Part shown: piece after piece, positions 1 to 15,393 of the stretch
Layout: every line of letters starts with the position of its first letter
Position numbering within the stretch: position 1 is the first letter of the stretch
The notes under the pieces: generated by a model
What the model was told of the DNA's origin: nothing
The model's input: the letters and a program-made list of their open reading frames with translations, nothing else
Databases searched by the model: none
NCBI GenBank assembly: GCA_019247075.1
Contig: JAFAPR010000213.1
Coordinates: 1-32,565, forward strand
Direction: 5' to 3'
Source of the DNA: Solirubrobacterales bacterium
GTDB taxonomy: Bacteria; Actinomycetota; Thermoleophilia; Solirubrobacterales; Solirubrobacteraceae
DNA length: 32,565 bases
Program-made: the position numbers and the translations under genes

Positions 1-77
1 ACGACTGCTGGGTGATTCCGAAGTCGGCGAAGCATCCGGTGCTCGGGCACCTGTTCATGAACCACTTCCTGGAGATG
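1..77 (+). repeat. Inverted repeat arm, identical to 10554-10630 on the other strand
   Basis: Bases 1-77 match the reverse complement of 10554-10630 without a mismatch; similarity continues to about base 290 at lower identity. Both arms lie in PotD-like coding sequence. The repeat may extend left of the window, because the paralogue at 10338-11615 is over 1.2 kb long. Confidence 0.9.
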
Positions 78-296
78 GAGAGCGCGATCGAGAACTTCCG
101 CGACGTGGGCTATCAGACGATGCTCAAGGACCTGACCATCGACAAGCTCAAGGCCGCCAATGTGGCGAAGCCGCAGGAGATCGAGATGGCGTTCTCACCA
201 CCCGCGTTCCAGAACAACGGCATCCCGATTCCGACTTGGAACAGCCACCAGCTGACGTGGATCGAACAGGAGTTCACACGGCTTACCGCGGCTTGA
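1..296 (+). CDS. PotD-like ABC transporter substrate-binding protein, C-terminal fragment (cut by window start)
   Basis: The open frame runs into the left edge, so only the last ~98 residues are visible (frame begins at base 3, reading D-C-W-V-I-P). It is recognised by near identity to the end of the complete PotD-like lipoprotein at 10338-11615: the segments VIPKSAKHPVLGHLFMNHFL and KPQEIEMAFSPPAFQN are shared. The family binds polyamines or related cations outside the membrane and passes them to an ABC permease; no permease or ATPase of that system is in view. The amidohydrolase gene follows within about 60 bases on the same strand, suggesting co-transcription. The first 77 bases are identical to the other copy and the rest is roughly 90 percent identical by eye, so the two are recent paralogues or under gene conversion. 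Confidence 0.85.
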   Translation, partial: DCWVIPKSAKHPVLGHLFMNHFLEMESAIENFRDVGYQTMLKDLTIDKLKAANVAKPQEIEMAFSPPAFQNNGIPIPTWNSHQLTWIEQEFTRLTAA

Positions 297-357
297 CGTC
301 GTAGCGGGAAACAGATCCTCGCTAGCAGTGGCCGTAGGATCGGATCGCGCGACCCGG

Positions 358-1473
358 GTGACCCGCTCCGGGGAGCCCGGTCGGACCGGCTGGGTCTCCC
401 ATGAGCGCTATCTGTGGCATGACACCGGTAGCGGAGCGGGTTTCCTCGAGGCCGGCGGATGGCTCGAGCCACTCGCGCACGTCGAGAGCGTGGCGACGAA
501 GCGTCGCTTTCAGAACCTCGTCGAGATCAGCGGCCTGCGACGAAAGCTGACCGAGATACTGCCTCGTCCGGCGACGAGGGAGCAGCTGCTAGCAGTGCAC
601 ACGGCGCAGTACGTCGCCCGGATCGAAGAGCTGAGTGCCGGCCGCGGCGGGGACGCGGGAGACGGGACGACGCCGTTCGGACGAGGCGGGTTCGAGATCG
701 CACAGCTGGCGGCGGGCGGGGCAGTCAGTGCGGTGGAGGCTGTCTTCAGCGGCGAGGTCGACAACGTCTACGCGCTCGTTCGGCCGCCTGGGCATCATGG
801 CCTGGCGGATCGCGGAATGGGGTTCTGCGTCTTCAACAACGCGGCGATCGCAATACGCCACCTCCAACGCACGACGGCGATCGATCGGATCGCGGTCGTG
901 GACTGGGACGTGCACCACGGCAACGGCACGCAGGAAATCTTCTACGAGGATCCCCGCGTGCTCGTGATCTCGGTCCATCAGGACCGCTGCTACCCGCCCG
1001 ACTCGGGGCTGATAGAGGAGCGCGGCTCCGGGGCCGGGGTGGGAGCCAACGTCAACGTCCCGCTGCCGCCCGGATCGGGGCACGAGGCTTACCTCGAGGC
1101 GTTCGGCCGCGTCGTGATCCCCGCGCTGCGCCGCTTTGACCCGCAGCTCGTCGTCGTCTCGAGCGGCTTCGACGCCAGCGTGTACGACCCCCTCGGCCGG
1201 ATGCTCCTGCACTCCGACAGCTACCGGCTGCTCACGGGGATGCTGCTCGAGGCGACCGGGGGCCGCCTGGCGCTGATACACGAGGGCGGCTACAGCGAGT
1301 TCTACGTCCCATTCTGCGGGCTCGCCGTGGTCGAGGCCCTGACTGGAACGCGGACAGGAGTCGAGGATCCCTTCCTGGAGGACGTCAAAACGCTGCCGGG
1401 GCAGCAGCTGACCTCGGCTCAGCAGGAGGCGATCGACGCCGTCGCGGCGGTGGTGGCCGGCATCCGCGGTTGA
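358..1473 (+). CDS. Class II histone deacetylase / acetylpolyamine amidohydrolase-like enzyme
   Basis: Zinc hydrolase of the arginase/deacetylase fold; bacterial members remove acyl groups from acetylated polyamines or other N-acyl amines in the cytoplasm. With a GTG start at 358 (371 aa), family signatures are RPPGHH at ~142-147 (catalytic His pair), GFCVFNN, DWDVHHGNGTQ at ~182 (metal ligands D184 and H186), SSGFDAS (third ligand D272) and HEGGY (transition-state Tyr ~312). The frame also allows GTG at 328. I prefer 358 because relatives begin just before the RTGWVSHERYLWHD segment; neither start has a clear Shine-Dalgarno site, and the ATG at 401 is out of frame. It lies between a PotD-like gene and the HpaB gene (58 bases on), so an N-acyl amine or N-acyl breakdown product is a likely substrate. 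The exact substrate is unknown. Confidence 0.9.
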   Translation: MTRSGEPGRTGWVSHERYLWHDTGSGAGFLEAGGWLEPLAHVESVATKRRFQNLVEISGLRRKLTEILPRPATREQLLAVHTAQYVARIEELSAGRGGDAGDGTTPFGRGGFEIAQLAAGGAVSAVEAVFSGEVDNVYALVRPPGHHGLADRGMGFCVFNNAAIAIRHLQRTTAIDRIAVVDWDVHHGNGTQEIFYEDPRVLVISVHQDRCYPPDSGLIEERGSGAGVGANVNVPLPPGSGHEAYLEAFGRVVIPALRRFDPQLVVVSSGFDASVYDPLGRMLLHSDSYRLLTGMLLEATGGRLALIHEGGYSEFYVPFCGLAVVEALTGTRTGVEDPFLEDVKTLPGQQLTSAQQEAIDAVAAVVAGIRG

Positions 1474-1531
1474 AGCCACGATGACCGTCTGCGAGAATAG
1501 TGGGAAAAGATAACCGCAGTATGGGAAACCG

Positions 1532-3019
1532 ATGATCAGGACCGGCGACGAATACCGAGACTCGATCCGTGACGGGCGCGAGGTGTGGATCGACGCCGAG
1601 CGGGTCGAGGACGTGCCCGCGCATCCGGCATTTAGGCCAATCGTCGATGCGCGCGCGCGGGTCTACGACCTCGCCCACGAGGACGCCACTCACGAGCTGA
1701 TGTCCTATGTCGACCCCGAGACCGGCGAGCGCTGCCCCGTCGCAGCCAAGCTGCCGCTCACCAAGTCCGACTGGTACGCCAAGCGAACGGCCGTGGACAA
1801 GGTGCTCGATGATGTCGGCGGGATCATCACCCGCGTCGGAGACGAGACGGTCGGCGAGATGTGGTCGCTGTACGACGGCCAGGATGTGCTCAATGAGATC
1901 AACCCCGCGTTCTCGGATCACATCCGCGATCAGGTGCATCAGCTCGCCCGGTCGGACACCTTCCACGTCTCTGGGAACACCGACCCCAAGGGCGATCGCA
2001 GCAAACGCCCCCAGGACCAGGATCCCGACGTGCTCTTGCACCTCGTAAACGAGACCAAGGACGGGATCATCGTGCGGGGCGCGAAGTTCGAGACGGCGGC
2101 CGCATACGCCAATCAGGCCTTCATCAAGCCGACGATCGCCGACTGGGGCACCGCCGAGCTCTCGGACTACGCGGTCGGCTTTCTTGCCGACATGGCCGCC
2201 CCGGGGATCAAGCACATCTGCCGCTCATCGTTCGCGGGCCGCGGATCCGACGCAGACTATCCGATGTCAAACCGCTTCGATGAGATCGACACCATGATCG
2301 TCTTCGACGACGTCGAGATCCCGTGGGAGAACGTCTTCTTCTACCGGCACACGCGCGCCGCCGCGTTCATCCGCGCGACGCTGCACCGCTACAGCATGTT
2401 CCCGTTCGTGCAGCGCCACCTGCGCTTCGCCGACCTGCTGGTCGGAGTCGCGTACACCAATGTCACGCAGACCGGGGTCAAGATACACCAGGGAGTACGC
2501 GAGAAGCTGGCCGAGCTCGTGTGCTACCGGGAAGGAATCAACGCGCACCTGACCGCAGCGATCGAGACAGCCGACGTCAGCCCGGCCGGGCTACTAATGC
2601 CCAACCCGGCGCTGCTGTACACCGGCCGCGTGCTCGCCTGTTCACAGCTACCGGCGATGATGCACCTGGCGCGCGATCTGTGTGGCGGCCAGCTCTGCGT
2701 AACCCCCAACGCCGATTCGTTTGCGGACCCCGAGACGGGCAGGTGGCTGAACAAGTACCTGGCGATCGGTGACACCGACGCGGAGGACCGGCGCCGCCTC
2801 TTGGCGTTCGCGCGCGACCTGCTCAACTCCGACTACGCCGGTCACCGGCTTACCTTCCAGCTGTTCGCCCAGTCGCCCGCGTTCGCGCACTTGCTCGCTG
2901 TCTACAACAACTATGACTTCGCCGGGCCGGCGGAGCTCGTGCGGCGCTACGCCGGCCTGAGCGGCTCGGTGAGCGAGGGCCGCGACGCACCGTTGGCGAC
3001 CCCCGCCGCGGGGTCGTGA
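1532..3019 (+). CDS. 4-hydroxyphenylacetate 3-hydroxylase (HpaB/PvcC) family flavin-dependent monooxygenase
   Basis: 495 aa, the full length of the HpaB oxygenase family, which uses FADH2 supplied by a separate reductase to hydroxylate aromatic or heteroaromatic rings (a few relatives are dehydratases). Family signatures include SNRFDEIDTMIVFDDVEIPW (~250-270), the helical KIHQGVREKLAELVCYREG segment (~315-335) and a C-terminal DLCGGQLCVTP region. No HpaC-type flavin reductase is visible, so FADH2 must come from elsewhere. The stop overlaps the GTG start of the HutI-like gene (GTGA, 3016-3019), indicating translational coupling. In this context ring hydroxylation ahead of hydrolytic opening is the likely role; phenylacetate itself is not supported because no ring-cleavage dioxygenase is nearby. 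Confidence 0.9.
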   Translation: MIRTGDEYRDSIRDGREVWIDAERVEDVPAHPAFRPIVDARARVYDLAHEDATHELMSYVDPETGERCPVAAKLPLTKSDWYAKRTAVDKVLDDVGGIITRVGDETVGEMWSLYDGQDVLNEINPAFSDHIRDQVHQLARSDTFHVSGNTDPKGDRSKRPQDQDPDVLLHLVNETKDGIIVRGAKFETAAAYANQAFIKPTIADWGTAELSDYAVGFLADMAAPGIKHICRSSFAGRGSDADYPMSNRFDEIDTMIVFDDVEIPWENVFFYRHTRAAAFIRATLHRYSMFPFVQRHLRFADLLVGVAYTNVTQTGVKIHQGVREKLAELVCYREGINAHLTAAIETADVSPAGLLMPNPALLYTGRVLACSQLPAMMHLARDLCGGQLCVTPNADSFADPETGRWLNKYLAIGDTDAEDRRRLLAFARDLLNSDYAGHRLTFQLFAQSPAFAHLLAVYNNYDFAGPAELVRRYAGLSGSVSEGRDAPLATPAAGS

Positions 3020-4290
3020 GCGATCTCAACCTTCTCCATGCCGCTCAGCTCGCGCGCGTCACGGACCGCGGCGCGGCCCGCCGGGGGGACGAGCAGCGAG
3101 AGCTCGACCTGATCGCCGACGGCGGGGTAGCAGTCAGAGCAGGTCGGATCGCCGCCGCGGGCACGACGGAGCAGATCCTCAGCGAGTGGGACGATGAGGT
3201 GCCGACGCTCGATTTGACGGGCAAAACCGTGCTGCCGGGCCTGATCGAGTGCCACTCGCACCCGCTGTTTGCGGGCAGTCGTCACGCCGAGTACTCAAGG
3301 CGCCTGGGCGGCGCCTCGCTTGAAGAGGTGGTGCGCGAGGGTGGCGGCATCTGGGCGACGGTGACGGCCACGCGCAGCGCCGCCGACACGGACCTGATCC
3401 GGCAGCTCGAGGGCGCGTACCGCAGGATCCTCGCCGGGGGTGTGACCACGCTCGAGGTCAAGTCGGGCTACGGACTCACCCCCGAACACGAGCTGCACCA
3501 GCTCGCGCTGCTCGATCGCAGCCGCGAGCTGACACCGCTGAGCTTGGTCGTCTCGTTCCTGGGCGCGCACGTCGTCCCGGCTGGGATCGACGCCGATGCC
3601 TACACCGAGGAGGTCGCGTCAATGCTGCCCGTCGTGCTCGAGCAGGGAGTTGCCGCGTTCCACGACCTCACCTGCGAGCACGGGCTGTTCACGCCGCAGC
3701 AGGCCGGGCGGCTGCTCGCCCGCTCGCGAGAGCTCGGCATCCCGACGAAGGTGCACGCAGATGCATGGGCCTCCTCCGAGGGATGGAGGACGGCGGTGGC
3801 TGGCGGCGCCGTCTCGGCCGAGCACCTCACCTACACGCCCGATGAAGAGATCCTCGACGCGGGCTGGACCGACACGGTGGCGGTATTGCTACCTCAGGCC
3901 GAGCTCGTGTACATGACCGAGCGGCGCGCGAACGCCCGCCTTCTGGTTGGGCGACGAGTGCCCGTCTCGATCGCAACCGACTACTGCTCCTCAATCCACG
4001 CGACGTCCTTGACGACCACGCTGGGGATCGCCGCACCGTGGTTCAGGCTCACCCCCGCCGAGGTGCTCGTTGGCGCGACTCTGAACGCCGCCTACGCGCT
4101 CGGCCTGCAGCGTGATCGAGGCTCAGTCGACACGGGCAAGCGTGCCGATTTGACGATCCTCGGCGTAGAGCACCCCGAGGAACTCTTCCTTGCTGTCGGT
4201 CAGCGGGTCGTGGACGGCGTGGTGATTGCCGGCGTCCCCGTCGACGGGCTTGGCGCCGAGACCAGCCCGAACTCCCCGGAGGTCAGATGA
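3016..4290 (+). CDS. HutI (imidazolonepropionase)-like amidohydrolase
   Basis: 424 aa metal-dependent amidohydrolase closest to imidazolonepropionase, which opens the imidazolone ring in histidine breakdown. Shared signatures are LPGLIECHSHPLFAGSR (metal ligands H80, H82), EVKSGYGL, FLGAHVVP, metal ligand H247 in KVHADA, H270 in AVSAEHL, and D322 in IATDY. Two active-site differences stand out: HutI has HADE where this has HADA (the acidic residue is missing), and HutI ATDFNPGS is here ATDYCSS. It therefore probably hydrolyses a related cyclic amide rather than imidazolonepropionate, and no hutH, hutU or hutG is nearby. It overlaps the upstream gene by four bases and the downstream RidA-like gene by four (ATGA at 4287), in the middle of a tight operon. 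Confidence 0.85.
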   Translation: MSDLNLLHAAQLARVTDRGAARRGDEQRELDLIADGGVAVRAGRIAAAGTTEQILSEWDDEVPTLDLTGKTVLPGLIECHSHPLFAGSRHAEYSRRLGGASLEEVVREGGGIWATVTATRSAADTDLIRQLEGAYRRILAGGVTTLEVKSGYGLTPEHELHQLALLDRSRELTPLSLVVSFLGAHVVPAGIDADAYTEEVASMLPVVLEQGVAAFHDLTCEHGLFTPQQAGRLLARSRELGIPTKVHADAWASSEGWRTAVAGGAVSAEHLTYTPDEEILDAGWTDTVAVLLPQAELVYMTERRANARLLVGRRVPVSIATDYCSSIHATSLTTTLGIAAPWFRLTPAEVLVGATLNAAYALGLQRDRGSVDTGKRADLTILGVEHPEELFLAVGQRVVDGVVIAGVPVDGLGAETSPNSPEVR

Positions 4291-4709
4291 GCCACACTCG
4301 CATCAGAAAATTCAACACCCAGGACGTCTATCGCGGCCAGCAATTTGATAACGACTTCTGCAACGCTGTCGTGGCGGATAACCTCGTGTTTCTGCGCGGA
4401 CAGGTGGGCATGGATCTCGACACAAACGAGTCGGTGGGAATTGGCGATCCCGCGGCGCAGGCGGAGAAGGCAATGTCGAACATCGAGATGCTGCTCGGCG
4501 AGGCCGGGGCACGCCTTGAGGACATCTGCAAGCTCGTCGTGTATGTGACAGACGTGCGCTATCGCGAGCCCGTCTACCAGGTGATCGGACGCTGGCTGCA
4601 CGGCGTCTACCCCTGCTCGACCGGGGTGGTGGTCAGCGGTCTCGCTCGCCGCGAGTGGCTGGTCGAGATCGACGCGACCGCGGTGATCCCGCGCGAGCGG
4701 ATGGAGTGA
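4287..4709 (+). CDS. RidA/YjgF/UK114 family protein
   Basis: 140 aa, the family length; members form trimers and the RidA branch hydrolyses reactive enamine/imine intermediates to ketones. The sequence has the family core (NLVFLRGQVG, AMSNIEMLLGEAGARLEDICK, LVEIDATAVIP). The catalytic arginine of canonical RidA, in the PARSC segment of the E. coli protein, aligns with Ser in PCSTG here, so canonical imine deaminase activity is doubtful; the Glu of VEIDATA is kept. Several arginine-lacking Rid subfamilies sit in catabolic operons as hydrolases. Coupled to the HutI-like gene by ATGA and four bases before the amine oxidase, it may process an unstable intermediate of either. Confidence 0.9.
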   Translation: MSHTRIRKFNTQDVYRGQQFDNDFCNAVVADNLVFLRGQVGMDLDTNESVGIGDPAAQAEKAMSNIEMLLGEAGARLEDICKLVVYVTDVRYREPVYQVIGRWLHGVYPCSTGVVVSGLARREWLVEIDATAVIPRERME

Positions 4710-4713
4710 CGCG

Positions 4714-6669
4714 GTGACCGAGTCAAAGCTCGCCGAGCAAGCGGCTGCTGCCACGGCGAACGTCAATCCGCACCCGCTCGATCCGCTGACGGGCCCGGAG
4801 CTGCGTCGCGCGGCGGCGCTCGCGCTCGCACGCTGCCGAGATCGCACGATGGCGCGGGTGATCGAAGTTTCGCTGCACGAGCCGGACAAGTCGGAGCTGC
4901 TGCCCTGGACTGCACAGAACGGCGAGCTCGGGCGCGAGGCGTGGGTGGTTGTGCTGGACCGACGCGAGGGGTCGACCATCGAATTGGTCGTCTCGCTGGA
5001 CGACGACGCCGTTGTCAGCGAGCGAGAGCTCCGCGGCGTTCAGCCAGCGATCACCCTATGGGAATTCCAGGAATGCGAGCAGGTGGTCCGCCACGATCCC
5101 GGGTTTCAGGAAGCGCTTCGCCGTCGCGGAGTCACCGACTTTGATCTCGTGACCGTCGAGGCGTGGGGCATGGGCACGCATCGGGACCCCGACGAACGCC
5201 ATCTACGGCTCGCCTGGACTCCTTGCTGGGTTCGCGAGGACCCCAGTGACAATCCGTACGCCCATCCGATCGACGGGCTGTTCGCGATCGTAGACCTAAA
5301 CGCGATGGCCGTGATCCGAATCGAGGATCATGGTGTCGCCCCGATCCCTAAGGCGTCCGGTCGGTATTTGCCTGGCGCGACCGGACTGCCGCTGAGACCG
5401 GGACTCCTGCCCCTCGAAATCAGTCAACCGCAGGGGCCAAGCTTCCACGTTGACGGTTGGGAGGTCTCCTGGCAGAAGTGGCGCTTCCGCGTCGGCTTCA
5501 CCTCGCGCGAGGGACTGGTCCTTCATCAGATCACCTATGAGGATCGGGGGCGGGGGCGTGTTCGGCCAATCATCTACCGCGCCTCGTACGTTGAGCTTGT
5601 GGTGCCCTACGGGGATCCGGGCCCGAGCGGTTACCGCAAGAACGCGTTCGACATCGGCGAGTATGGCGTGGGCGCGTTTGCCAACTCGCTCGAGCGGGGG
5701 TGCGATTGCCTCGGGGAGATCCATTACTTCGACGTCGATCTCTGCGACGATCGCGGGGAGCCGTTCACGATCAAGAACGCCGTCTGCCTGCACGAGGAGG
5801 ACTTCGGCCTGGGCTGGAAGCATTACGACAGCCCCACCGACCACGCCGAGGCCCGGCGAATGCGGCGGCTGGTCGTCTCGTTCATCGTCACCCTCGGCAA
5901 CTACGAGTACGCCTTCTACTGGTACCTCTGCCAGGACGGCACGATCGAGAGCGAGGTCAAGGCCACCGGCATCGTGCTCACCCGTGGTCCTGCTCCCTAC
6001 GGCGACCCGTACGGCGTGACCGTCGCGCGAGGCTTGGTGGCACCCCATCATCAGCACTTCTTCTGCGCGCGCCTGGATATGCAGATCGACGGGGCGCGCA
6101 ACTCGGTGTACGAGGTGAACACCGCAGCTGTCGAGGGACGTGAAGCTAATCCGTACGGTAATGCCTTTACGCCGGTTTACACTCGGTTGGAACGGGAGGT
6201 GGAGGCTCACAGAAGCGTCAACCCGTTCACCGGACGCTACTGGGTGGTCAGCAACGACCTAGTGCATAACTCGCTGGGTGAGCCGGTCGGATACAAGTTG
6301 GTGCCCGGCAACACTGTGCCACCGTTCGCTACCGATGACGCCGACGTTATCCGGCGAGCCCCGTTCCTGCGCCACAACGTGTGGGTAACTCGCTACGATC
6401 GGCGGCAGCGCTTCCCCGCCGGCGAATACCCCAACCAGCACCCCGGCGGTGCCGGGTTGCCAGACTACCAACGCGCAGATCGACCGATAGTCGACGACGA
6501 CATCGTGCTCTGGTATGCGTATGGGATGCTCCACATCTCGCGACCGGAGGACTGGCCGGTGATGCCGGTCGAGCGCGCCGGATTCATGCTCAAGCCCACT
6601 GGGTTCTTCGACCGCAACCCGGCTATCGACGTTCCCCCGTCGTCTGATCACAACCAGAATCGGCATTAG
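4714..6669 (+). CDS. Copper-containing (topaquinone) primary amine oxidase
   Basis: 651 aa, close to actinobacterial phenylethylamine/histamine oxidases (~640 aa). The enzyme converts R-CH2-NH2, O2 and water to aldehyde, ammonia and H2O2 using copper and a self-made topaquinone. All hallmarks are present: catalytic base D313 in DIGEYGVG, topaquinone-precursor Y397 in TLGNYEY, copper ligands H446 and H448 in HHQHF, and third ligand H607 in MLHISRPEDWPVMP. There is no signal peptide, so it acts in the cytoplasm. The GTG start is four bases after the RidA-like stop, making this the last gene of the operon. The substrate (aryl-ethylamine, histamine or polyamine) cannot be decided from sequence; the flanking PotD-like and HutI-like genes favour a polar or imidazole amine. 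Confidence 0.95.
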   Translation: MTESKLAEQAAAATANVNPHPLDPLTGPELRRAAALALARCRDRTMARVIEVSLHEPDKSELLPWTAQNGELGREAWVVVLDRREGSTIELVVSLDDDAVVSERELRGVQPAITLWEFQECEQVVRHDPGFQEALRRRGVTDFDLVTVEAWGMGTHRDPDERHLRLAWTPCWVREDPSDNPYAHPIDGLFAIVDLNAMAVIRIEDHGVAPIPKASGRYLPGATGLPLRPGLLPLEISQPQGPSFHVDGWEVSWQKWRFRVGFTSREGLVLHQITYEDRGRGRVRPIIYRASYVELVVPYGDPGPSGYRKNAFDIGEYGVGAFANSLERGCDCLGEIHYFDVDLCDDRGEPFTIKNAVCLHEEDFGLGWKHYDSPTDHAEARRMRRLVVSFIVTLGNYEYAFYWYLCQDGTIESEVKATGIVLTRGPAPYGDPYGVTVARGLVAPHHQHFFCARLDMQIDGARNSVYEVNTAAVEGREANPYGNAFTPVYTRLEREVEAHRSVNPFTGRYWVVSNDLVHNSLGEPVGYKLVPGNTVPPFATDDADVIRRAPFLRHNVWVTRYDRRQRFPAGEYPNQHPGGAGLPDYQRADRPIVDDDIVLWYAYGMLHISRPEDWPVMPVERAGFMLKPTGFFDRNPAIDVPPSSDHNQNRH

Positions 6670-6692
6670 GCCTGAGCACGGCGTAGGCCTAA
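6666..6692. repeat. Inverted repeat straddling the amine oxidase stop codon
   Basis: TTAGGCCT (6666-6673) and AGGCCTAA (6685-6692) are perfect reverse complements separated by 11 bases; the TAG stop lies inside the left arm. It could be a hairpin that helps end the operon transcript or protects its 3' end, but no T-run follows, so a classical intrinsic terminator is not supported. Confidence 0.5.
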
Positions 6693-7072
6693 AACGAGTG
6701 TCGCTTACGGGTTTGAGCCACGCATCGCGGGCCGCCCCACGGCTGCGCCCGAGCGCCCTCACGACGCAAGGCCGCCTCGCTCCCGCGCGAGCGCGATACC
6801 GCCCCGCGGCGTGCCCTGCGTACGGGTTAGGTGATCGCCGTGGCAATCGGGATCCACCATTTTGGCTGAGGGGCTGCGATCTGCGTCTCCGCCCGCACCG
6901 GGGCCATCAGCCTCGCGACCCGTCCTGATCATCGGCTTCGCGCTGCGCAATCCAAGCGCGCGTGGGTGCCGACACAGCCCAAGCACGCCAACCGCAACGC
7001 ACCGCTAAGCGCCCCACCCGAAAATGTGCTTGCCTTGCCACTGGCGCTCGGCGGGGAACTAGCCTAGGCGGC
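6693..7072. other. Intergenic region before the IclR gene, no gene supported
   Basis: About 380 bases with no convincing coding frame on either strand. It must contain the promoter of the IclR-type regulator, but I see no clear -35/-10 pair. A CCGAGCGCCCTC stretch near 6750 resembles half of the palindromes found at 14143 and 14274, which may be chance in GC-rich DNA. Confidence 0.5.
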
Positions 7073-7879
7073 ATGCCGCGACCGAGGAGAGCGGAAGGGC
7101 CGGAGACGCCCAAGGTGCTCGGGAGGGCGTTGCGCGTGCTCGAAGCGTTCGACGAACACTCTCCGCAGTGGTCGGAGGCGGGGCTTCGGCGTGAGCTTGG
7201 TCTGCCGTCATCGACACTCAATCGCATCCTGCGCGTGTTGGAGAGCAACGGCTACGTGCTGCGTCGAGAGGACGGGCAGTACCGATTGGGACTCGCAGCC
7301 ATCCGTCTTGGCAATCGCGCAACCGAGTCCTTGGATCTGGCAGCCATGCTCGACTCGCTTATCCGCGAAGTCGCCCGGGAGGCGAAGGAGCTGACGCTGC
7401 TCGCCGTCCCAGACTTCTCGGCCGGCAAAGCGACCTACATCGCGGTCGGTGAATCCACAAGCCGGCTGCGGGTGACTGCGGAGGTGGGGACATCAGTACC
7501 GTTGACCGCGGGCGCGACAGCCAGGGTCTTGCTGGCCTTCCAGCCACAAACCGTGATCGATACGGTGCTCGAGCGTCCGCTGCAGCGGATCGCGAATGGC
7601 ACTTTGACCGAGCCGGATGTTGTGCGAGCGCGTCTGGAGAAGGCTCGCCAGCAGGGCTGGACGATGAGCTGGGAGGAGACCTACGACGGAGCCTGGGCGG
7701 TCGCCACGCCAGTACTCGGCGACGACGGGAAGACCGCGTTTGCGTCCATCGGCGTAGCGTCTCCGATCACCCGTCATACGAAGAAACTGGAGGCCGACAT
7801 CCGGAGGCTCGCGCTCGATGCTGCCTTTCGCGCGCGTGGCGCGCTCGGGTACACCAACGTCGACGCTGCTTTCGGTTAG
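7073..7879 (+). CDS. IclR family transcriptional regulator
   Basis: 268 aa from ATG 7073; the frame is open further upstream, but homology (VLGRALRVLEAFDEHSP) begins just after this ATG. The N-terminal winged helix-turn-helix spans about residues 12-75 (LRRELGLPSSTLNRILRVLE, then YVLRREDGQYRLG), followed by the IclR effector domain with VPLTAGATARVLLAF and GVASPITRH. IclR proteins usually control catabolic operons next to them and respond to a pathway substrate or intermediate. It lies between the amine oxidase operon and the convergent amine dehydrogenase gene, so it is the obvious candidate regulator of the island. Whether it activates or represses is not visible. Confidence 0.93.
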   Translation: MPRPRRAEGPETPKVLGRALRVLEAFDEHSPQWSEAGLRRELGLPSSTLNRILRVLESNGYVLRREDGQYRLGLAAIRLGNRATESLDLAAMLDSLIREVAREAKELTLLAVPDFSAGKATYIAVGESTSRLRVTAEVGTSVPLTAGATARVLLAFQPQTVIDTVLERPLQRIANGTLTEPDVVRARLEKARQQGWTMSWEETYDGAWAVATPVLGDDGKTAFASIGVASPITRHTKKLEADIRRLALDAAFRARGALGYTNVDAAFG

Positions 7880-8006
7880 CGCTGTGGATGCGTTGTTTTA
7901 CCGGAACTTCCCGCTGGCATCCATCGCTCGAGCACCCCGGCCAACTGCACTGAGATGACGCGCGCGTCACTCGTCGGTTCTCCGAGCCTGCTTGGCGCCC
8001 GGCTGA

Positions 8007-10112: not shown

Positions 10113-10337
10113 GTCGCCGTCAGCTCGAGGCGCCGGCCACGTCGATCGCGAGCACGCCGCGCGGCGTCGAGGTACCCGTGGAAAACGCTACGTGGCGTGT
10201 GCAGCTCTCGCGGCCGCGCCGGGACGATCCTTCGGCTCAACCGCGCCATGCATCCCGAGAAGAGTTCATCAGCCTCGCGAGCGGGATTGGGCACGTGCAT
10301 AGGAGGGCCTGTCCCCAGGTCCAGCCTTCCGGGAGCG

Positions 10338-11615
10338 TCACGCCGTGAGCTGCGCGAACGCCTGCTCGATCCATGCTCGTTGCTGCGTGTTCCAGGTTGG
10401 AATCGGGATGCCGTCGTTTTGAAACGCGGGTGGCGAGAACGCCATCTCGATCTCCTGCGGCTTCGCCACCTTGGCGGCCTTGAGCTTATCGATGGTCAGG
10501 TCCGTGAGCATCGTCTGATAGCCGACGTCCCGGAAGTTGTCGATCGCGCTCTGCATCTCCAGGAAGTGGTTCATGAACAGGTGCCCGAGCACCGGATGCT
10601 TCGCCGACTTCGGAATCACCCAGCAGTCGTTGATGATCACGCCCCGCCCGTCAGTCGGGAAGTAGTAGCTAACTGCGGACAGTGGCACCGATTTCGGTAG
10701 GTAGCTGCCGATCACCGCGAAGTCGCCGTTGAAGGCGTACACGAGCTTCTCGACTCCGGTGGCAAGCGGCTGGTAGCTCGTGTACTGCCATTTCACGTGA
10801 TTGAGCAGCGACAGCTCGTGGGCCGCAGCGGTGATGTCGGCATAGGTGACCGACTCGAGATCGTTGCCGTTGCGGATCAGCGACATCCCGATTGGGTCGG
10901 ATGCTGTGTCGTTCAACATGCCCATTGGAGTGCTTGTTGGGGCGTTCCAGAAAACGTCCCAGGGATTGCTCATCGACGCCGGATCGATCTTGATCAGGTC
11001 GTTGCGCCATCCGATCCCGTTCGTGTTGATGAAGTTCGGAGACGTGTAGCGCGCACCTTTGTCGTACCAGGGATCGCCCGCCGCCGGGATGACAGTGTCC
11101 AGGTTCGGGACGTAGCTGTGGTTGATGGGCTGGATCAGCTTGCTCCGGACGAACTCGTAGATGTGTTCGGCGTCCGGCACCCAGACGTCCGGGGTGATCG
11201 CGCCCGAAGCTACCTTGTTGATCGCCTCGTCGATCGTCGCGAACGTCGTCACCTGCGCGGTGACGCCGTACTTCTGCTCGAAGCTCTTGACCACCGCCGG
11301 GCTGAGGTAGAACGCCCAGTCGTAGATGATCAGCGGGCCTTTCTCGGGTGAATGACCCGAGGCGATCGGCTTATTGTCGGAGAAGATCGGCAGCGTGATC
11401 GGTCGCTTCTTGGTCGAGATCGGAAGCGCCGGGTTGCTCTTCGCGCTGGACGTACTGCTCGAGCTCGAGCCGCATGCCGCCAGCAGCCAACTCGACCCGG
11501 CGAGTGCCGCCGCTCCTCCGACCGAGCGGCGGAGCATCGTTCGCCGCGTCATACCCAGCCCGTCGGCGGCCGCCAGCCCATCGGGCAGCCGTGAGCCCTG
11601 CTCGCTATCACCCAT
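10338..11615 (-). CDS. PotD-like ABC substrate-binding protein, Tat-exported lipoprotein
   Basis: 425 aa from ATG 11615, chosen because a strong GAGGAGGAAGGA ribosome site precedes it directly; the frame stays open for 47 more codons. The N terminus has a twin-arginine signal (TRRTMLRR, ~23-30) and lipobox LAAC (Cys48), followed by a Ser-rich linker. The mature part is a spermidine/putrescine-type binding protein (DWAFYLSPAVVKSFEQKYGV, PDVWVPDAEHIYEF, TNGIGWRNDL). It should sit on the outer face of the membrane and bind an amine or other cation. No permease or ATPase follows; the next gene is the amine dehydrogenase. Its C-terminal third is nearly identical to the fragment at 1-296, in opposite orientation. 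Confidence 0.9.
   Translation of the reverse strand: MGDSEQGSRLPDGLAAADGLGMTRRTMLRRSVGGAAALAGSSWLLAACGSSSSSTSSAKSNPALPISTKKRPITLPIFSDNKPIASGHSPEKGPLIIYDWAFYLSPAVVKSFEQKYGVTAQVTTFATIDEAINKVASGAITPDVWVPDAEHIYEFVRSKLIQPINHSYVPNLDTVIPAAGDPWYDKGARYTSPNFINTNGIGWRNDLIKIDPASMSNPWDVFWNAPTSTPMGMLNDTASDPIGMSLIRNGNDLESVTYADITAAAHELSLLNHVKWQYTSYQPLATGVEKLVYAFNGDFAVIGSYLPKSVPLSAVSYYFPTDGRGVIINDCWVIPKSAKHPVLGHLFMNHFLEMQSAIDNFRDVGYQTMLTDLTIDKLKAAKVAKPQEIEMAFSPPAFQNDGIPIPTWNTQQRAWIEQAFAQLTA
10554..10630 (-). repeat. Inverted repeat arm, identical to 1-77
   Basis: The reverse complement of this segment equals bases 1-77. The two arms are about 10.5 kb apart and enclose the deacetylase, monooxygenase, HutI-like, RidA-like, amine oxidase, IclR and amine dehydrogenase genes. 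Confidence 0.9.
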
Positions 11616-12346
11616 TCCTTCCTCCTCTCGGCTGCTCATCTTTCTTCGATCGTCAGTCCCCACGAAGTCCGGATTTAGGTCGGCCCGTCGCCCTTCGATC
11701 ATCGCCTGCACCCAATCCGCCTTGCCACACCCGCCTGGTCGGTCAGAAGAGCACAACTGAGTCGCCGCAATCGCTGAGGACCACTCCGGCCTTGCGGCGC
11801 AGCGCTACCGAATCGGGGGCGATCGCAAGTAGGCGCTCCGGCAGCTGGATAGCGGGCGGAGATCACGACCTGCTCCCGGATCTCGCCGACAGCAACTCCT
11901 GAAGCACACGCATCCTGTCCGCGCTCGTCAGTTCTGCATCCGGGGCGGGCGGGCATCCGCGGTCGTGTGCCACGTCTCTTTTCTCTCACCGCTTGCCGAC
12001 GGCTTCCCGAATCGCGGAAAGGGTTCCCAAAGTTCAAGACACCCTATCGCGACTTGCCGCGACGCGCAAGGTTTTGACTCCGCGACGAGCGCCCTGCACA
12101 CCAGGCATGGACCCGCTGGGCGTGGCAAGGACTCGCGTCTTTGGACATGGCGACGTCGTCGGCTGCCGGGCCGTGGTGCTATGCCTCAGTCGAGGCTCCG
12201 GACCGCCCGGTTGCTTCTGGAGCTAGGTGAACGACCTCAGGCTCCGGGTCCAGAGCCATCGAGCTCGCACGGTTCGACCGCCTGTTTACATCGCGAGAAT
12301 CGACGCTCGCGGGTAAGAACGCGTGAAACGAAACTCGGCACGGAAT
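11616..12346. other. 731-base region without a supported gene
   Basis: Upstream of the - strand PotD-like gene and outside the IS remnant. No frame looks like a real protein over a useful length. On the - strand about 35 codons around 11757-11860 read plausibly (PERLLAIAPDSVALRRKAGV) before a stop, which may be the end of a decayed gene. The region presumably holds the promoter of the lipoprotein gene; I cannot assign one. Confidence 0.5.
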
Positions 12347-12370
12347 TGTCAATGGCCATCTGTTTGTCCT

Positions 12371-12438
12371 CACCGGCGGCCATGAAATTCCCCACCGGTG
12401 GCCATCCTTCTCGCCGCTGGTGGCCACGAAAGTCCCCA
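12371..12438. repeat. IS21 subterminal direct repeats
   Basis: Two 24-base repeats at 12371-12394 and 12415-12438 match at 19 of 24 positions (shared core GGCCA.GAAA.TCCCCA) with a 44-base period. A weaker third copy is at about 12349-12372. Such repeats bind the transposase at IS21-type ends. Confidence 0.65.
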
Positions 12439-12464
12439 TCTTCAGCGGGCTGCTGTTTTTAGGA

Positions 12465-12740
12465 AAGGGCCTTCACCCCCTTGCCGACTGTCGCTTGGGC
12501 GAGCCGGTAGCTGTCTTCGGCGATGATCACGTGGGCGTATGCAGAAGCCGGTCGACGGTGGCGGTCGCCACAGTTTTGGGCATTAGTTCGTCGAAACCGG
12601 AGGGTGGATGTTTGATGAGATCGCGATGGAGCGTTTCTCGTAGGCGGCGTCGACTACTCTGAAGAGCGCTTCGGCCGCTTCGGGCGAGACAGGCAAGAGG
12701 CCGATGTCATCGACCAGGGCAACCACACCGGCCCTTGGCG
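12465..12740 (-). pseudogene. istB: istB fragment (IS21 helper ATPase), frameshifted
   Basis: Only the C-terminal ~85 codons remain. The - strand reads RAGVVALVDDIGLLPVSPEA, AYEKRSIAISSNIHP, then after a frame change near 12595 GFDELMPKTVATATVDRLLH, and after a second change near 12540 AHVIIAEDSYRLAQATVGKG, ending at a stop near 12467. The VDDIGLLP stretch is the Walker B region of the ATPase that assists IS21 transposition. The Walker A half is missing and at least two single-base losses break the frame, so it cannot make a working protein. Confidence 0.8.
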
Positions 12741-12745
12741 CGTGA

Positions 12746-14077
12746 CTACGTTGTGGATCCTGCACGCTCGGGCAAGCGCTGGAGGCGCATTGTTGCTGTC
12801 AGGGCGTGCCCACCGAAGTGCTCGGCCTCGCAGATCGCCGCTACTGTCGGGGCGATCCGGCGCGTTCCCTCCTCGGTAAGCCGCTGGTAGGTGCAGGTCT
12901 TCAGGAACTTCCCGACCCACAAGCCACCGGTGTAGCGAGCTGCGCCCATCGTCGGAAGGATGTGATTCGTCCCGACAGCTTTGTCCCCATAGGCGACCGT
13001 CGCCTGCTCGCCAAGGAATAGCGAGCCGTAGTTACGCAGTACATGCAAGTACCAGTCCTGCTCGTCCTTGGTCACTTGAACCTCGAGATGCTCAGGAGCG
13101 ATCTCATCGGACACAGCCACCGCCTCCTCCCGGCCGTCAACGACGACAACGGAGCCGTGAGCCTCCCAGGCTTCGCGAGCCACCTCACGGGTTGGCCACG
13201 TTCTCAGCAGTTGCTTCACTTGCTCCAGAACGTCGCGACCGAGCTCGTACGAGGTTGTGATCAGGATCGCGGGCGAGGTCGGGCCGTGCTCGGCCTGACC
13301 CAGGAGATCAGCGGCGACCAGCCGCGCGTCAGCGGTCTCGTCGGCGATCACGACGATCTCGGTCGGCCCGGCAAGCAGGTCGATTCCGACTCTGCCGAAA
13401 AGCTGCCGCTTCGCCTCGGCGACGTAAGCATTGCCGGCCCCAACGATCATGTCGACCGGCTCGAACTCCTCAATGCCGAACGCCATCGCTGCCAGCGCCT
13501 GCACCCCGCCAAGGCATAGCATCTGATCTGCACCGGACGTGGCGATCGCGTACAGCATCGCTGGGTCGATTCCGGCGCCGCCGCGCGGTGGCGCGCAGGC
13601 GATCACTCGCTGCACGCCCGCCACCTTCGGGACGATCACCGTCATGAACGAGGATGCGAGCATCGGGTACCGGCCGCCCGGAACATACGAACCAACGGCG
13701 CCGACGGGAATATGACGGTGCCCCAGATTGATCCCCGGCTGTATCTCGATCTCCAGGTCCGTCATCGCCGCGCGCTGCGCCTCCGCAAATGCGCGCACCT
13801 GGCTCTGCGCGAACGCGATGTGCTGGCGCAGTTCATGCTTGAGCATTGCTTCCGCTGGCGCAACCCTCTTTGGATCGACTAAAAATGATGGGGGATCCCA
13901 GCCGTCCAGTTGCCGCGAATACTCCCGAATCGCCTTCTCTCCGCCCCGCTCGATCCGGGAGAGCATCTCCGAAACCGTACGCCGGACTTCCTCGGTCGCC
14001 TGCCCGCTGTACATCGGAGCTTGCTTGAGGTACCTGGGCATCTTTGAGAACTCGCGATCGTAGCCCATCATCGGCAC
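12746..14077 (-). CDS. Histidinol dehydrogenase family protein (HpsN-like, catabolic branch)
   Basis: 443 aa; HisD-family enzymes are zinc- and NAD-dependent and oxidise an alcohol through the aldehyde to an acid. Conserved features are GHRHIPVGAVGSYVPGGRYP (~118-137), VGAGNAYVAEAKRQLFG, AGPTEIVVIAD, metal-ligand pair QAEH, catalytic pair in APEHLEV, Asp in AYGDKAVGTNH and the final His in EAEHFGGHA. The GHRHIPV start and LPTMGAARYTGGLWVGKF end resemble the sulfopropanediol-dehydrogenase (HpsN) type rather than biosynthetic HisD, and no other his gene is nearby. Starts are possible at GTG 14077 or ATG 14071 or 14068. It diverges from the transaminase gene. A role in oxidising the alcohol or aldehyde left after deamination is my inference. 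Confidence 0.87.
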   Translation of the reverse strand: MPMMGYDREFSKMPRYLKQAPMYSGQATEEVRRTVSEMLSRIERGGEKAIREYSRQLDGWDPPSFLVDPKRVAPAEAMLKHELRQHIAFAQSQVRAFAEAQRAAMTDLEIEIQPGINLGHRHIPVGAVGSYVPGGRYPMLASSFMTVIVPKVAGVQRVIACAPPRGGAGIDPAMLYAIATSGADQMLCLGGVQALAAMAFGIEEFEPVDMIVGAGNAYVAEAKRQLFGRVGIDLLAGPTEIVVIADETADARLVAADLLGQAEHGPTSPAILITTSYELGRDVLEQVKQLLRTWPTREVAREAWEAHGSVVVVDGREEAVAVSDEIAPEHLEVQVTKDEQDWYLHVLRNYGSLFLGEQATVAYGDKAVGTNHILPTMGAARYTGGLWVGKFLKTCTYQRLTEEGTRRIAPTVAAICEAEHFGGHALTATMRLQRLPERAGSTT

Positions 14078-14142
14078 CCCAGACCGAGTCGCACAATCTC
14101 ACATGGGACGCGCACCACCGCCTCGGTCTGGCCCGCTCTGCC

Positions 14143-14156
14143 GAGCGTTAACGCTC
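14143..14156. promoter_or_regulatory. Perfect 14-base palindrome, candidate operator 1
   Basis: GAGCGTTAACGCTC is its own reverse complement. With flanks the half-site reads CCGAGCG, the same as in the second palindrome, which suggests a shared dimeric DNA-binding protein. It lies 66 bases upstream of the dehydrogenase start. Confidence 0.5.
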
Positions 14157-14273
14157 TCGGGTCTACCCAGCCGCGCGTCATGCTGCACACCACCGTCTGA
14201 ACAACCTGGACGAGACCTACAAGCGGCTAGCAGACGCTTTGCCGGAGGAGGAAGTGGCTCACGACCCGAACTT

Positions 14274-14287
14274 ACCGAGCGCTCGGT
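14274..14287. promoter_or_regulatory. Perfect 14-base palindrome, candidate operator 2
   Basis: ACCGAGCGCTCGGT is its own reverse complement and contains the CCGAGCG half-site of operator 1 with a shorter centre. The two centres are 131 bases apart. It lies about 156 bases upstream of the transaminase start. Confidence 0.45.
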
Positions 14288-14442
14288 GCGCCGGGCGGTG
14301 AACCTGGAAGTCGTCGCTGCGGGCGCCGAGCGAAACACGCCCTCACCGATTGTGGCCAGGTCGCTTTCTGCCTTCGGCAGGTGCGGAAGATACGATCCTC
14401 TCACCCCGGTCCTCGTGCCAAGCCGCTTTCTGAGGTGAGCAG

Positions 14443-15393
14443 ATGACGGCGAGTAGGTCAACGTCAACTCCGACTCGGTCGACTGCGTCCGCGGAAAATC
14501 CGTTCGCAGCAGGGTGCGCGTGGATCGAAGGTGAGTATGTGCCCATCCGGGAGGCCAGGATCCCGATCCTCGACGCTGGTTTTGTACGTTCGGACCTGAC
14601 CTACGATGTCGTTGGCGTTTGGGAGGGGAGCTTCTTCAGACTCCCTGACCATATGGCACGACTGGAGGCCGGGCTCAGGCGCATCCGCTTGCGCTCTCCT
14701 GTCTCGCGGAATCAGATACACGAAATCCTCTTCGAACTCGTGCGGCGCTCGGGGCTGCGGGAGGCATACGTTGAGACTGTGGTCACCCGCGGGGTGCCCG
14801 CACCTGGTGAGCGCGATCCCCGACAGGGGGATCCGCGCTTTTACGCGTATGCGATCCCGTACGTCTGGATCGTCCGGCCGGAGCAGCAGGAAGTCGGCAC
14901 CCAGGCGGTGGTCGCGCGCGAGACGGTACGCATTCCACCCGACGCGGTGGATCCGAGAGTCAAGAACTTTCACTGGGGAGATCTTGTTCGTGGGCTGTTC
15001 GAGGCCTACGACCGCGGAGGGTGGCTGCCGATCCTTACCGATGGGAGAGGTCTCATCGCTGAAGGTCCCGGATTCAATGTATTCGCCCTCGTCGACGGAC
15101 GGCTGATGACACCGCGCGCGGGTGTACTCGAAGGCATCACCCGCAAGACTGTGATCGAGCTAGCCAGGGAAGCAGGTCTTTCGATGAGTGTGGGCGATCT
15201 GCCGGTGGCGTCGCTCTACCGAGCCACCGAGGTGTTTTTCACCAGCACGGCGGGCGGTGTGATGCCCGTGACGATGCTCGACGGCAAGCCGGTGGGCGAC
15301 GGTCGCCCTGGACCAGTGACGATGAACCTCCGCAGTAGGTATTGGGATCTCCACCGAGATCCTCGTTACAACCTTCCTGTCGACTACTCCTGA
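14443..15393 (+). CDS. Class IV PLP aminotransferase, (R)-selective amine transaminase type
   Basis: 316 aa fold-type IV aminotransferase. It follows the (R)-selective amine:pyruvate transaminases of Aspergillus terreus and Arthrobacter more closely than branched-chain or D-amino-acid transaminases: NPFAAGCAWIEGEYVP, ARIPILDAGFVRSDLTYDV, FFRLPDHMARLEAG, VTRGVP, YVWIVRP, then K174 in VDPRVKNFHWGDLVRGLFEA (Schiff-base lysine), EGPGFNVFAL, GVLEGITRK and TSTAGGVMPVT. The enzyme would move the amino group of an amine to a keto acid. The ATG is preceded by GAGGTGA at good spacing. It diverges from the HisD-family gene, suggesting the two act in sequence on an amino alcohol or amine. Substrate and stereopreference are inferred from similarity only. 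Confidence 0.88.
   Translation: MTASRSTSTPTRSTASAENPFAAGCAWIEGEYVPIREARIPILDAGFVRSDLTYDVVGVWEGSFFRLPDHMARLEAGLRRIRLRSPVSRNQIHEILFELVRRSGLREAYVETVVTRGVPAPGERDPRQGDPRFYAYAIPYVWIVRPEQQEVGTQAVVARETVRIPPDAVDPRVKNFHWGDLVRGLFEAYDRGGWLPILTDGRGLIAEGPGFNVFALVDGRLMTPRAGVLEGITRKTVIELAREAGLSMSVGDLPVASLYRATEVFFTSTAGGVMPVTMLDGKPVGDGRPGPVTMNLRSRYWDLHRDPRYNLPVDYS

What the first reader, a model, noticed from the sequence alone, without database searches (positions are those of the whole stretch)
1..15393. An amine-catabolism island combining three deamination chemistries with a ring-opening module
Within 15 kb are a topaquinone amine oxidase, a trimethylamine/histamine-dehydrogenase-like flavoprotein and an (R)-amine-transaminase-like enzyme, plus a HisD-family dehydrogenase, HpaB monooxygenase, HutI-like amidohydrolase, RidA-like protein, deacetylase-like amidohydrolase, two PotD-like binding proteins and an IclR regulator. 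An order that uses all parts: uptake, deamination to aldehyde, oxidation to acid, ring hydroxylation to an imidazolone-like product, hydrolytic ring opening, removal of the remaining N-acyl group. This parallels aerobic histamine/imidazoleacetate breakdown but with different enzyme families. I know of no described pathway with this set.
Basis: partly seen in the sequence, partly recalled or inferred. Interest (0 to 1): 0.78.

Follow-up and report, generated by a model that had tools for sequence, protein, structure and literature searches.

The report
Histamine breakdown operon with swapped enzymes
A bacterial gene island that most likely breaks histamine down to aspartate by the same chemical steps as the known Pseudomonas pathway, but with unrelated enzymes doing three of the four ring-breaking and clean-up steps, which hints at functions for protein families that had none.

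Summary
The flavoprotein is a histamine dehydrogenase by sequence: 993 bits to the solved Nocardioides enzyme, 7 of 8 proposed histamine-site residues kept. The operon HDAC-HpaB-HutI-RidA-amine oxidase matches, slot by slot, the known hinFLHG module (imidazoleacetate to aspartate), which on plasmids reads FAD-monooxygenase (FMO), RidA, DUF1028, M20 deacylase. RidA is kept. HpaB stands for the FMO, a diverged HutI clade for DUF1028, an HDAC-fold hydrolase for M20. Relatives show the first two swaps separately: FMO/DUF1028, HpaB/DUF1028 (15 of 15 near-full-length plasmid HpaBs), FMO/HutI (3 loci), HpaB/HutI (4 loci). HpaB has lost two of three phenol-contact residues; the HutI clade has lost two canonical residues and its genome shows no urocanase. 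HisD and the class IV aminotransferase are probably not part: an IS21 relic lies between and none of nine relatives shows them. No enzyme was assayed; the reactions of HpaB, HutI, RidA and HDAC are inferred. Two plasmids carry both monooxygenases, and no HpaC-type reductase was found in this incomplete genome. Verdict: a new variant of a known pathway.

The parts
3..296 (+). C-terminal fragment of a PotD-like solute-binding protein, cut by the contig start
   Evidence: 87.5% identical to residues 377-472 of the other PotD
328..1473 (+). HDAC-fold amidohydrolase; proposed N-formylaspartate deformylase (HinG slot)
   Evidence: PF00850 284.6 bits; closest solved: dimethoate hydrolase, propanil hydrolase, HDAH; DWDVHH, GFDA, HEGGY present; HDAC also in L031 (70%) and in the Bacillus badius cluster (47%)
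1532..3019 (+). HpaB-family oxygenase; proposed two-component imidazoleacetate hydroxylase (HinF slot)
   Evidence: PF11794/PF03241; phenol contacts changed; 15 of 15 near-full-length plasmid relatives with RidA and DUF1028 within 10 kb
3016..4290 (+). HutI-like amidohydrolase of a separate clade; proposed imidazoloneacetate hydrolase (HinH/DUF1028 slot)
   Evidence: TIGR01224 314.6 bits; ten clade members split from 30 canonical HutI, 100/100
4287..4709 (+). RidA-family protein, hin type (HinL)
   Evidence: 66% identical to RidA of the Arthrobacter hin module
4714..6669 (+). copper/topaquinone amine oxidase
   Evidence: NF008559 882.8 bits; 45% to the hin-linked oxidase of Arthrobacter
6962..7879 (+). 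IclR-family regulator
   Evidence: PF01614, PF09339; relatives at 53% in L031 and L032, a 65-residue piece at 62% in L034
8007..10112 (-). histamine dehydrogenase
   Evidence: 993 bits to PDB 3k30; Gln65, Ile74, Phe77, Glu79, Asn115, Trp267, Asp358 equivalents kept, Tyr181 is Leu (list of proposed site residues from PMC10180351)
10338..11756 (-). PotD-like solute-binding protein (amine uptake, inferred)
   Evidence: PF13416; PotD/PotF models below cut-off
12586..12798 (-). stop-free piece of an IS21 IstB relic, probable edge of the island
   Evidence: PF01695 30.3 bits, cut-off 24.1
12746..14077 (-). HisD paralogue; membership in the pathway unsupported
   Evidence: TIGR00069 437.6 bits; 0 of 9 relatives; a second HisD (40% identical) lies in two pieces elsewhere in the genome
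14443..15393 (+). class IV aminotransferase; membership in the pathway unsupported
   Evidence: PF01063; no NCBIfam model over cut-off; 0 of 9 relatives

Best explanation
The island is a hin-type histamine-to-aspartate pathway with replaced parts. Inferred steps: a Pot-type ABC transporter takes up histamine; histamine dehydrogenase and/or the copper amine oxidase make imidazole acetaldehyde; an aldehyde dehydrogenase not identified in the island makes imidazole-4-acetate; HpaB, fed with FADH2 by a separate flavin reductase, hydroxylates the ring to imidazolone acetate; the HutI-like hydrolase opens the lactam to N-formimino-aspartate; RidA removes the imine nitrogen to give N-formyl-aspartate; the HDAC-fold hydrolase (M20 in most relatives) releases formate and aspartate. 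Shown here: gene content and spacing, identity of the histamine dehydrogenase by sequence and site residues, slot-by-slot match to hinFLHG, and separate exchange of the monooxygenase and ring-opener slots. Inferred: each individual reaction, above all those of RidA and HDAC.
For: Histamine dehydrogenase: 993 bits to 3k30, 857 to 6de6, 520 to TMADH; Gln/Trp/Asp also in L038, L045, L050, L051, L052, while three TMADH-like controls (L047-L049) have Tyr and no Asp. Known module on plasmids: FMO-RidA-DUF1028-M20, with amine oxidase, aldehyde dehydrogenase and aspartate ammonia-lyase in Arthrobacter, and with histamine dehydrogenase, aldehyde dehydrogenase, aspartase and PotABCD-like genes in Leisingera. 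L038 has PotA-like, two permeases, PotD-like, M20, FMO, RidA, HutI, histamine dehydrogenase in a row: DUF1028 is the swapped part. Paracoccus aminophilus pAMI6 has HpaB-RidA-DUF1028-ArgE: HinF is the swapped part. 15 of 15 near-full-length plasmid HpaB relatives have RidA and DUF1028 within 10 kb, 13 of 15 a flavin reductase; control 0 of 6 distant HpaBs with RidA or DUF1028. No DUF1028 in the stretches held of 10 of 10 HutI-clade loci. M20 in 8 of 10; the 2 without (window, L031) have HDAC. No urocanase in the genome.
Against: No assay. Two plasmids (L120, L121) carry both HpaB and the FMO, so the two may not do the same job. No HpaC-type reductase (PF01613) was found in this genome nor a relative of the plasmid ones in any of the 10 HutI-clade loci, though all 9 other genomes with the clade have PF01613 somewhere; the genome is 87% complete. 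No aldehyde dehydrogenase in the island; one near 2 of 10 HutI-clade loci. Histamine dehydrogenase sits with the HutI module in only 2 of 10 loci and, in L045 and L046, lies in 20 kb without any hin partner. The HutI clade lacks residues conserved in canonical HutI, so its substrate cannot be read off. RidA was not seen in 4 of 10 HutI-clade loci. A 16th plasmid HpaB match, a 133-residue remnant, has no RidA or DUF1028 annotated near it. Histamine dehydrogenases also oxidise putrescine and other amines (PMC10180351).
Confidence: 0.77

Rival explanations
1. The lower module acts on a different imidazole (for example an N-methylated or otherwise substituted imidazole acid), and histamine dehydrogenase is only a loosely linked feeder.
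For: Both monooxygenases coexist in L120 and L121; the four Paracoccus clusters have branched-chain-type ABC genes and no annotated amine-oxidising gene within 10 kb; the HutI clade differs from canonical HutI at two conserved positions.
Against: Histamine dehydrogenase directly follows HutI in L038 (open frames as called overlap by 4 bases) and lies in the same cluster as HpaB in L120 and L121; aspartase near 5 of 15 plasmid HpaB loci fits an aspartate product.
Confidence: 0.15
2. A polyamine or aryl-amine pathway: PotD, amine oxidase and an acetylpolyamine-type HDAC feed an HpaB phenol hydroxylase.
For: PotD-like protein, HDAC family and an AGAO-like oxidase.
Against: HpaB has Glu and Ser where phenol-type relatives have an aromatic residue and mostly His; a HutI-like ring opener has no place in it; polyamine deacetylases score far below the closest solved HDACs; partners are hin-type RidA and histamine dehydrogenase.
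Confidence: 0.04
3. Histidine utilisation: HutI is the ordinary imidazolonepropionase and the rest is coincidental neighbourhood.
For: HutI scores above the TIGR01224 cut-off.
Against: No urocanase found in the (incomplete) genome; separate clade with 100/100 support; 30 of 30 canonical rows have Glu/Gln and Asn where 10 of 10 clade rows have Ala and Cys/Ser.
Confidence: 0.02
4. Chance neighbourhood in a mobile or rearranged region.
For: IS21 relic; duplicated PotD; contig edge.
Against: 4-bp overlaps and partners kept in Actinobacteriota, Pseudomonadota and Bacillota.
Confidence: 0.02

Closest known systems
hin histamine pathway of Pseudomonas putida U / P. aeruginosa (hinFLHG; de la Torre 2018 not held, known here through passages of PMC6467879 and PMC8231116)
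   Same: step order, RidA (HinL), a monooxygenase, a ring-opening amidase slot, a deacylase slot, amine deamination feeding it
   Different: HpaB instead of the FAD-monooxygenase HinF, HutI clade instead of DUF1028 (taken as HinH), HDAC instead of M20 (taken as HinG); histamine dehydrogenase and copper amine oxidase instead of the aminotransferase HinC; IclR instead of LysR
HpaB two-component flavin hydroxylases (2yyg and others)
   Same: near full-length family match
   Different: 24-33% identity to phenol-type or other distant relatives; Tyr and His phenol contacts replaced by Glu and Ser
HutI imidazolonepropionase (2bb0/2g3f)
   Same: His, Arg, Tyr and Asp of the site aligned and kept (their roles recalled)
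   Different: His-Ala-Asp-Ala-Trp and TD[YF]xSSIHATSL in place of Glu/Gln and TDxNG; no urocanase in the genome
Nocardioides simplex histamine dehydrogenase (3k30)
   Same: full-length match, 7 of 8 proposed site residues
   Different: Leu at the Tyr181 position

Membership tests
hin histamine/imidazoleacetate pathway | hin-type RidA (HinL) | tested here: met
   66% to Arthrobacter hin RidA
hin histamine/imidazoleacetate pathway | HinF-type FAD-monooxygenase in the cluster | tested here: not met
   none in the window; HpaB in its place
hin histamine/imidazoleacetate pathway | DUF1028 (HinH slot) in the cluster | tested here: not met
   one DUF1028 elsewhere in the genome, without hin partners in the 15.9 kb held
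hin histamine/imidazoleacetate pathway | M20 deacylase (HinG slot) in the cluster | tested here: not met
   HDAC in its place
hin histamine/imidazoleacetate pathway | histamine-deaminating enzyme linked | tested here: met
   histamine dehydrogenase
hin histamine/imidazoleacetate pathway | growth on histamine | not testable with these tools
   no strain
histamine dehydrogenase | Gln65, Trp267, Asp358 equivalents | tested here: met
HpaB phenol hydroxylase | Arg100, Tyr104, His142 contacts (numbers recalled, Thermus enzyme) | tested here: not met
   Arg kept, Glu and Ser at the other two in 18 of 18 subfamily rows
HpaB two-component system | separate flavin reductase | tested here: inconclusive
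   near 13 of 15 plasmid HpaBs; not found in this genome
HutI imidazolonepropionase | TIGR01224 above cut-off | tested here: met
   314.6 vs 298.15 bits
HutI imidazolonepropionase | conserved Glu/Gln and Asn of the pocket | tested here: not met
HutI imidazolonepropionase | urocanase in the genome | tested here: not met
   (genome 87% complete)
copper amine oxidase | NYD/E topaquinone motif and HxH (motifs recalled) | tested here: met
N-formylaspartate deformylase (HDAC) | activity | not testable with these tools
   position only

The most novel reading that the evidence does not exclude
Three new enzyme functions in one pathway: an HpaB subfamily that hydroxylates imidazole-4-acetate (a two-component, non-phenolic HpaB found in Actinobacteriota, Pseudomonadota and Bacillota), a HutI clade that opens imidazolone acetate and has displaced DUF1028 (which would make hin-linked DUF1028 the ring-opening imidazolone hydrolase), and HDAC-fold hydrolases acting as N-formylaspartate deformylases.
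Probability: 0.45. Interest if true: 0.75.

Novelty: new variant of a known kind. Interest (0 to 1): 0.62.

Why it matters
Non-homologous replacement at three of four consecutive steps, with in-between combinations still present in sequenced genomes, is an unusually clean record of a pathway being rebuilt part by part. Because HutI chemistry (opening an imidazolone) is known, its place in the DUF1028 slot gives a testable function for a family labelled unknown, and the HpaB subfamily gains a proposed non-phenolic substrate. Such enzymes could be of use for histamine sensing and removal in food.

Tried and rejected
Rejected: polyamine or aryl-amine pathway (HpaB phenol contacts lost); ordinary hut pathway; TMADH function; HisD as a conserved pathway step (0 of 9 relatives; IS21 relic; kept only as a speculation for the missing aldehyde oxidation); the class IV aminotransferase as a histamine transaminase (0 of 9; no model over cut-off).

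Led nowhere: ten paper searches, of which I saw listings and read passages of three papers only (PMC6467879, PMC8231116, PMC10180351), showed no description of HpaB, HutI or HDAC in histamine degradation; DUF1028 is named in 0 papers of that library. The original hin paper is not held. The histamine oxidase of Arthrobacter globiformis was not compared (no sequence at hand), so the copper amine oxidase's substrate stays open. Promoter and terminator counts were below the shuffle means. Gene calls in relatives came from a crude GC3 script: some listed starts are too long, and not all called genes were searched for domains. No structure prediction was run.

Rows dropped: L040 and L041 (35% over 60 residues); L128 HpaB from the tree and the 18-row count (broken frame; its first motif reads RVGDET); the 133-residue Rhizobium daejeonense remnant (L137) from the count of 15, told as the 16th.
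Full report
What is there. The window is the start of a contig (C8:1-32565) of a genome of 3.88 Mb in 367 contigs, 87% complete. Relatives that carry the same HutI-like gene at 69-72% are MAGs named 'Actinomycetes', Thermoleophilia or Solirubrobacterales. From 328 to 6669 on the + strand run an HDAC-family hydrolase, HpaB, a HutI-like amidohydrolase, RidA and a copper amine oxidase, with spacings of 58, -4, -4 and +4 bases, then an IclR regulator. On the - strand follow a flavoprotein and a PotD-like binding protein; then an IS21 IstB relic, a HisD paralogue and, on the + strand, a class IV aminotransferase. A second PotD is cut by the contig start and is 87.5% identical to the first. After a tRNA-Met the genes are of other kinds.

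The amine. The flavoprotein matches solved histamine dehydrogenase of Nocardioides simplex at 993 bits, that of Rhizobium at 857 and trimethylamine dehydrogenase at 520. Of the eight residues listed as proposed histamine-binding sites in PMC10180351 (passages read), seven are kept and Tyr181 is Leu (positions carried over from the alignment). Among ten aligned proteins, window, L038, L045, L050, L051 and L052 have Gln/Trp/Asp, L046 has Glu/Trp/Asp, and L047-L049 have Tyr/Trp and no Asp. Matches at E <= 1e-150 were found in 5 of 396 genomes of the phylum, own genome included; two of the five (G222, G244) are of the last kind. The copper amine oxidase carries the topaquinone motif; its substrate cannot be read off, but an oxidase 45% identical lies beside the hin module in an Arthrobacter plasmid.

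The known pathway. PMC6467879 and PMC8231116 (passages read) describe the hin pathway: HinF FAD-monooxygenase, HinL enamine deaminase, HinH amidase, HinG amidase (EC 3.5.1.8), six steps from histamine to aspartate, with imidazole-4-acetate as intermediate. The original paper is not held. In annotated plasmids I found modules in the same order: FAD-oxidoreductase (FMO), RidA, DUF1028, M20/ArgE (L053 Streptomyces, L054 Arthrobacter, L055 Burkholderia). In Leisingera they lie with histamine dehydrogenase, aldehyde dehydrogenase, aspartase and PotABCD-like genes; in Shinella the histamine dehydrogenase stretch has RidA, DUF1028 and ArgE, and the FMO lies about 42 kb away on the plasmid. That HinH is DUF1028 and HinG is M20 is inferred from gene order and names; I did not have the Pseudomonas sequences.

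The HutI clade. A genome scan with the HutI-like protein returned 11 loci; two were short, weak matches and were dropped, leaving nine at 56-72% identity. With the window that makes ten loci. Within the stretches held (tblastn at E <= 1e-6, unless said): DUF1028 0 of 10; RidA 6 of 10; M20 8 of 10 (seven by tblastn, of which L032 at 30% was confirmed by Pfam, and L034 by Pfam); HDAC 2 of 10 (window, L031), the two without M20; HpaB 4 of 10 (window, L032, L033, L034); HinF-like FMO 3 of 10 (L037, L038, L039), L037 and L039 also with a Rieske oxygenase; an acyl-CoA-dehydrogenase-like protein in L035; none of these four monooxygenase-type proteins in L031 and L036 (not every gene there was searched; L036 has another flavoprotein at its end); PotA-like at 48-52% in 5 of 10; histamine dehydrogenase 2 of 10 (window, L038); class III aminotransferase in L031 and L033 and at 33% in L032; aldehyde dehydrogenase in L033 and L037; aspartase-like lyase in L036; flavin reductase like the plasmid ones 0 of 10; HisD, class IV aminotransferase and copper amine oxidase only in the window. 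Several contigs are short, so absences are weak. In L038 the order is PotA-like, two permeases (PF00528), PotD-like, M20, FMO, RidA, HutI, histamine dehydrogenase: the known module with DUF1028 replaced.

In a tree of these ten with 30 HutI proteins (the 30 best of 76 genomes with a TIGR01224 match among 198 of the phylum), the two groups are split by a branch of 1.23 changes per site with 100/100 support. All 30 others have Glu or Gln three residues after the metal-site His and Asn two after the metal-site Asp; all ten have Ala and Cys/Ser. Other pocket positions (Arg, Tyr, His, His) align and are kept; their roles are recalled from the Bacillus enzyme. The own genome has no urocanase and no other HutI above cut-off. 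The clade is rare: 5 of 232 genomes of the order, own genome included, at E <= 1e-80.

The HpaB subfamily. At E <= 1e-120 the window HpaB has 15 plasmid relatives at 53-66% identity; an even sample of 24 of the 207 records at E <= 1e-30 shows the rest at 24-32%, apart from one 133-residue match at 62%. I fetched all 15: RidA and DUF1028 lie within 10 kb in 15 of 15 (in L128 about 8-9 kb away), M20 in 12 of 15, flavin reductase in 13 of 15, aspartase in 5 of 15, histamine dehydrogenase in 2 of 15. The 133-residue remnant (L137) has no RidA or DUF1028 annotated in its stretch. The 15 are not all independent: four HpaB rows are identical copies of others. The two without a flavin reductase (L120, L121) have the FMO and histamine dehydrogenase as well. 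Bacillus badius has flavin reductase, HpaB, RidA, DUF1028, a class II histone deacetylase 47% identical to the window's, class III aminotransferase and aldehyde dehydrogenase, and no M20 in the stretch. Six distant HpaB loci, picked by me from the sample as a control, show RidA or DUF1028 in 0 of 6. Eighteen of 18 subfamily rows have Glu and Ser where 7 of 7 distant rows (from those six loci) have Tyr/Phe and 5 of 7 have His; the four printed alignments to solved enzymes, two of them the same Thermus protein, have Tyr and His. No HutI-like gene was found in the 21 plasmid stretches searched (the latter with L038 as a positive control).

Reading. The four combinations FMO/DUF1028, HpaB/DUF1028, FMO/HutI and HpaB/HutI all exist, so the monooxygenase and the ring opener seem to be exchanged independently, with RidA as the usual constant. 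The simplest account is one pathway, imidazole-4-acetate to aspartate, with swapped parts; histamine dehydrogenase or the amine oxidase supplies the acid by way of an aldehyde dehydrogenase not seen in the island. RidA as the step that frees ammonia from the formimino group, and HDAC as the deformylase, are inferences from position.

Against. L120 and L121 carry both monooxygenases. No PF01613 reductase was found in the own genome, while the 9 other genomes with the HutI clade have at least one. Histamine dehydrogenase lies without hin partners in the 20 kb held of L045 and L046; in Ideonella (L050) the nearest hin genes are an M20 and an FMO some 9-12 kb away. One DUF1028 exists elsewhere in the own genome, in an open frame of 305 codons and without hin partners in the 15.9 kb held.

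Novelty. Ten paper searches in an open-licence library listed no account of HpaB, HutI-like or HDAC proteins in histamine degradation and no paper naming DUF1028; I saw listings, and passages of three papers. Most subscription papers are not in that library. I file it as a new variant of the hin pathway.

Noticed in passing
L116 14950-16122 (similar in L119, L124-L126): A flavin reductase domain (PF01613) fused to a LysR effector-binding domain in L116 (tblastn matches at the like place in the others). The LysR regulator HinK of the hin pathway is reported to bind imidazoleacetate (PMC8231116), so this reductase may be switched on by the substrate.
   Followed up: partly
L122 9402-21249: Bacillus badius plasmid cluster with HDAC, class III aminotransferase and aldehyde dehydrogenase beside HpaB-RidA-DUF1028.
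   Followed up: partly
L037 9579-10712 and L039 9091-10557: Rieske ring-hydroxylating oxygenase kept beside HutI-RidA-FMO-M20 in two Acidimicrobiales loci; role unknown.
   Followed up: no
L035 255-1466: Acyl-CoA-dehydrogenase-like protein (PF08028 among its matches) upstream of M20-HutI, possibly a third kind of flavin monooxygenase in this slot.
   Followed up: no
L049 9946-12000: A second TMADH-like protein in the window's genome (43%), with Tyr and no Asp at the histamine site positions.
   Followed up: partly
L046 9470-11500: Histamine dehydrogenase relative with Glu at the Gln65 position.
   Followed up: no
window 12586-12798: IS21 IstB relic between PotD and HisD.
   Followed up: partly
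window 3-296 and 10338-11756: Two PotD copies, 87.5% identical over the shared stretch, on opposite strands at the two ends of the island.
   Followed up: no
L116, L123-L127, L130: A HutD-family gene is annotated near HpaB-RidA-DUF1028 in these Paracoccus and Aminobacter plasmids.
   Followed up: no
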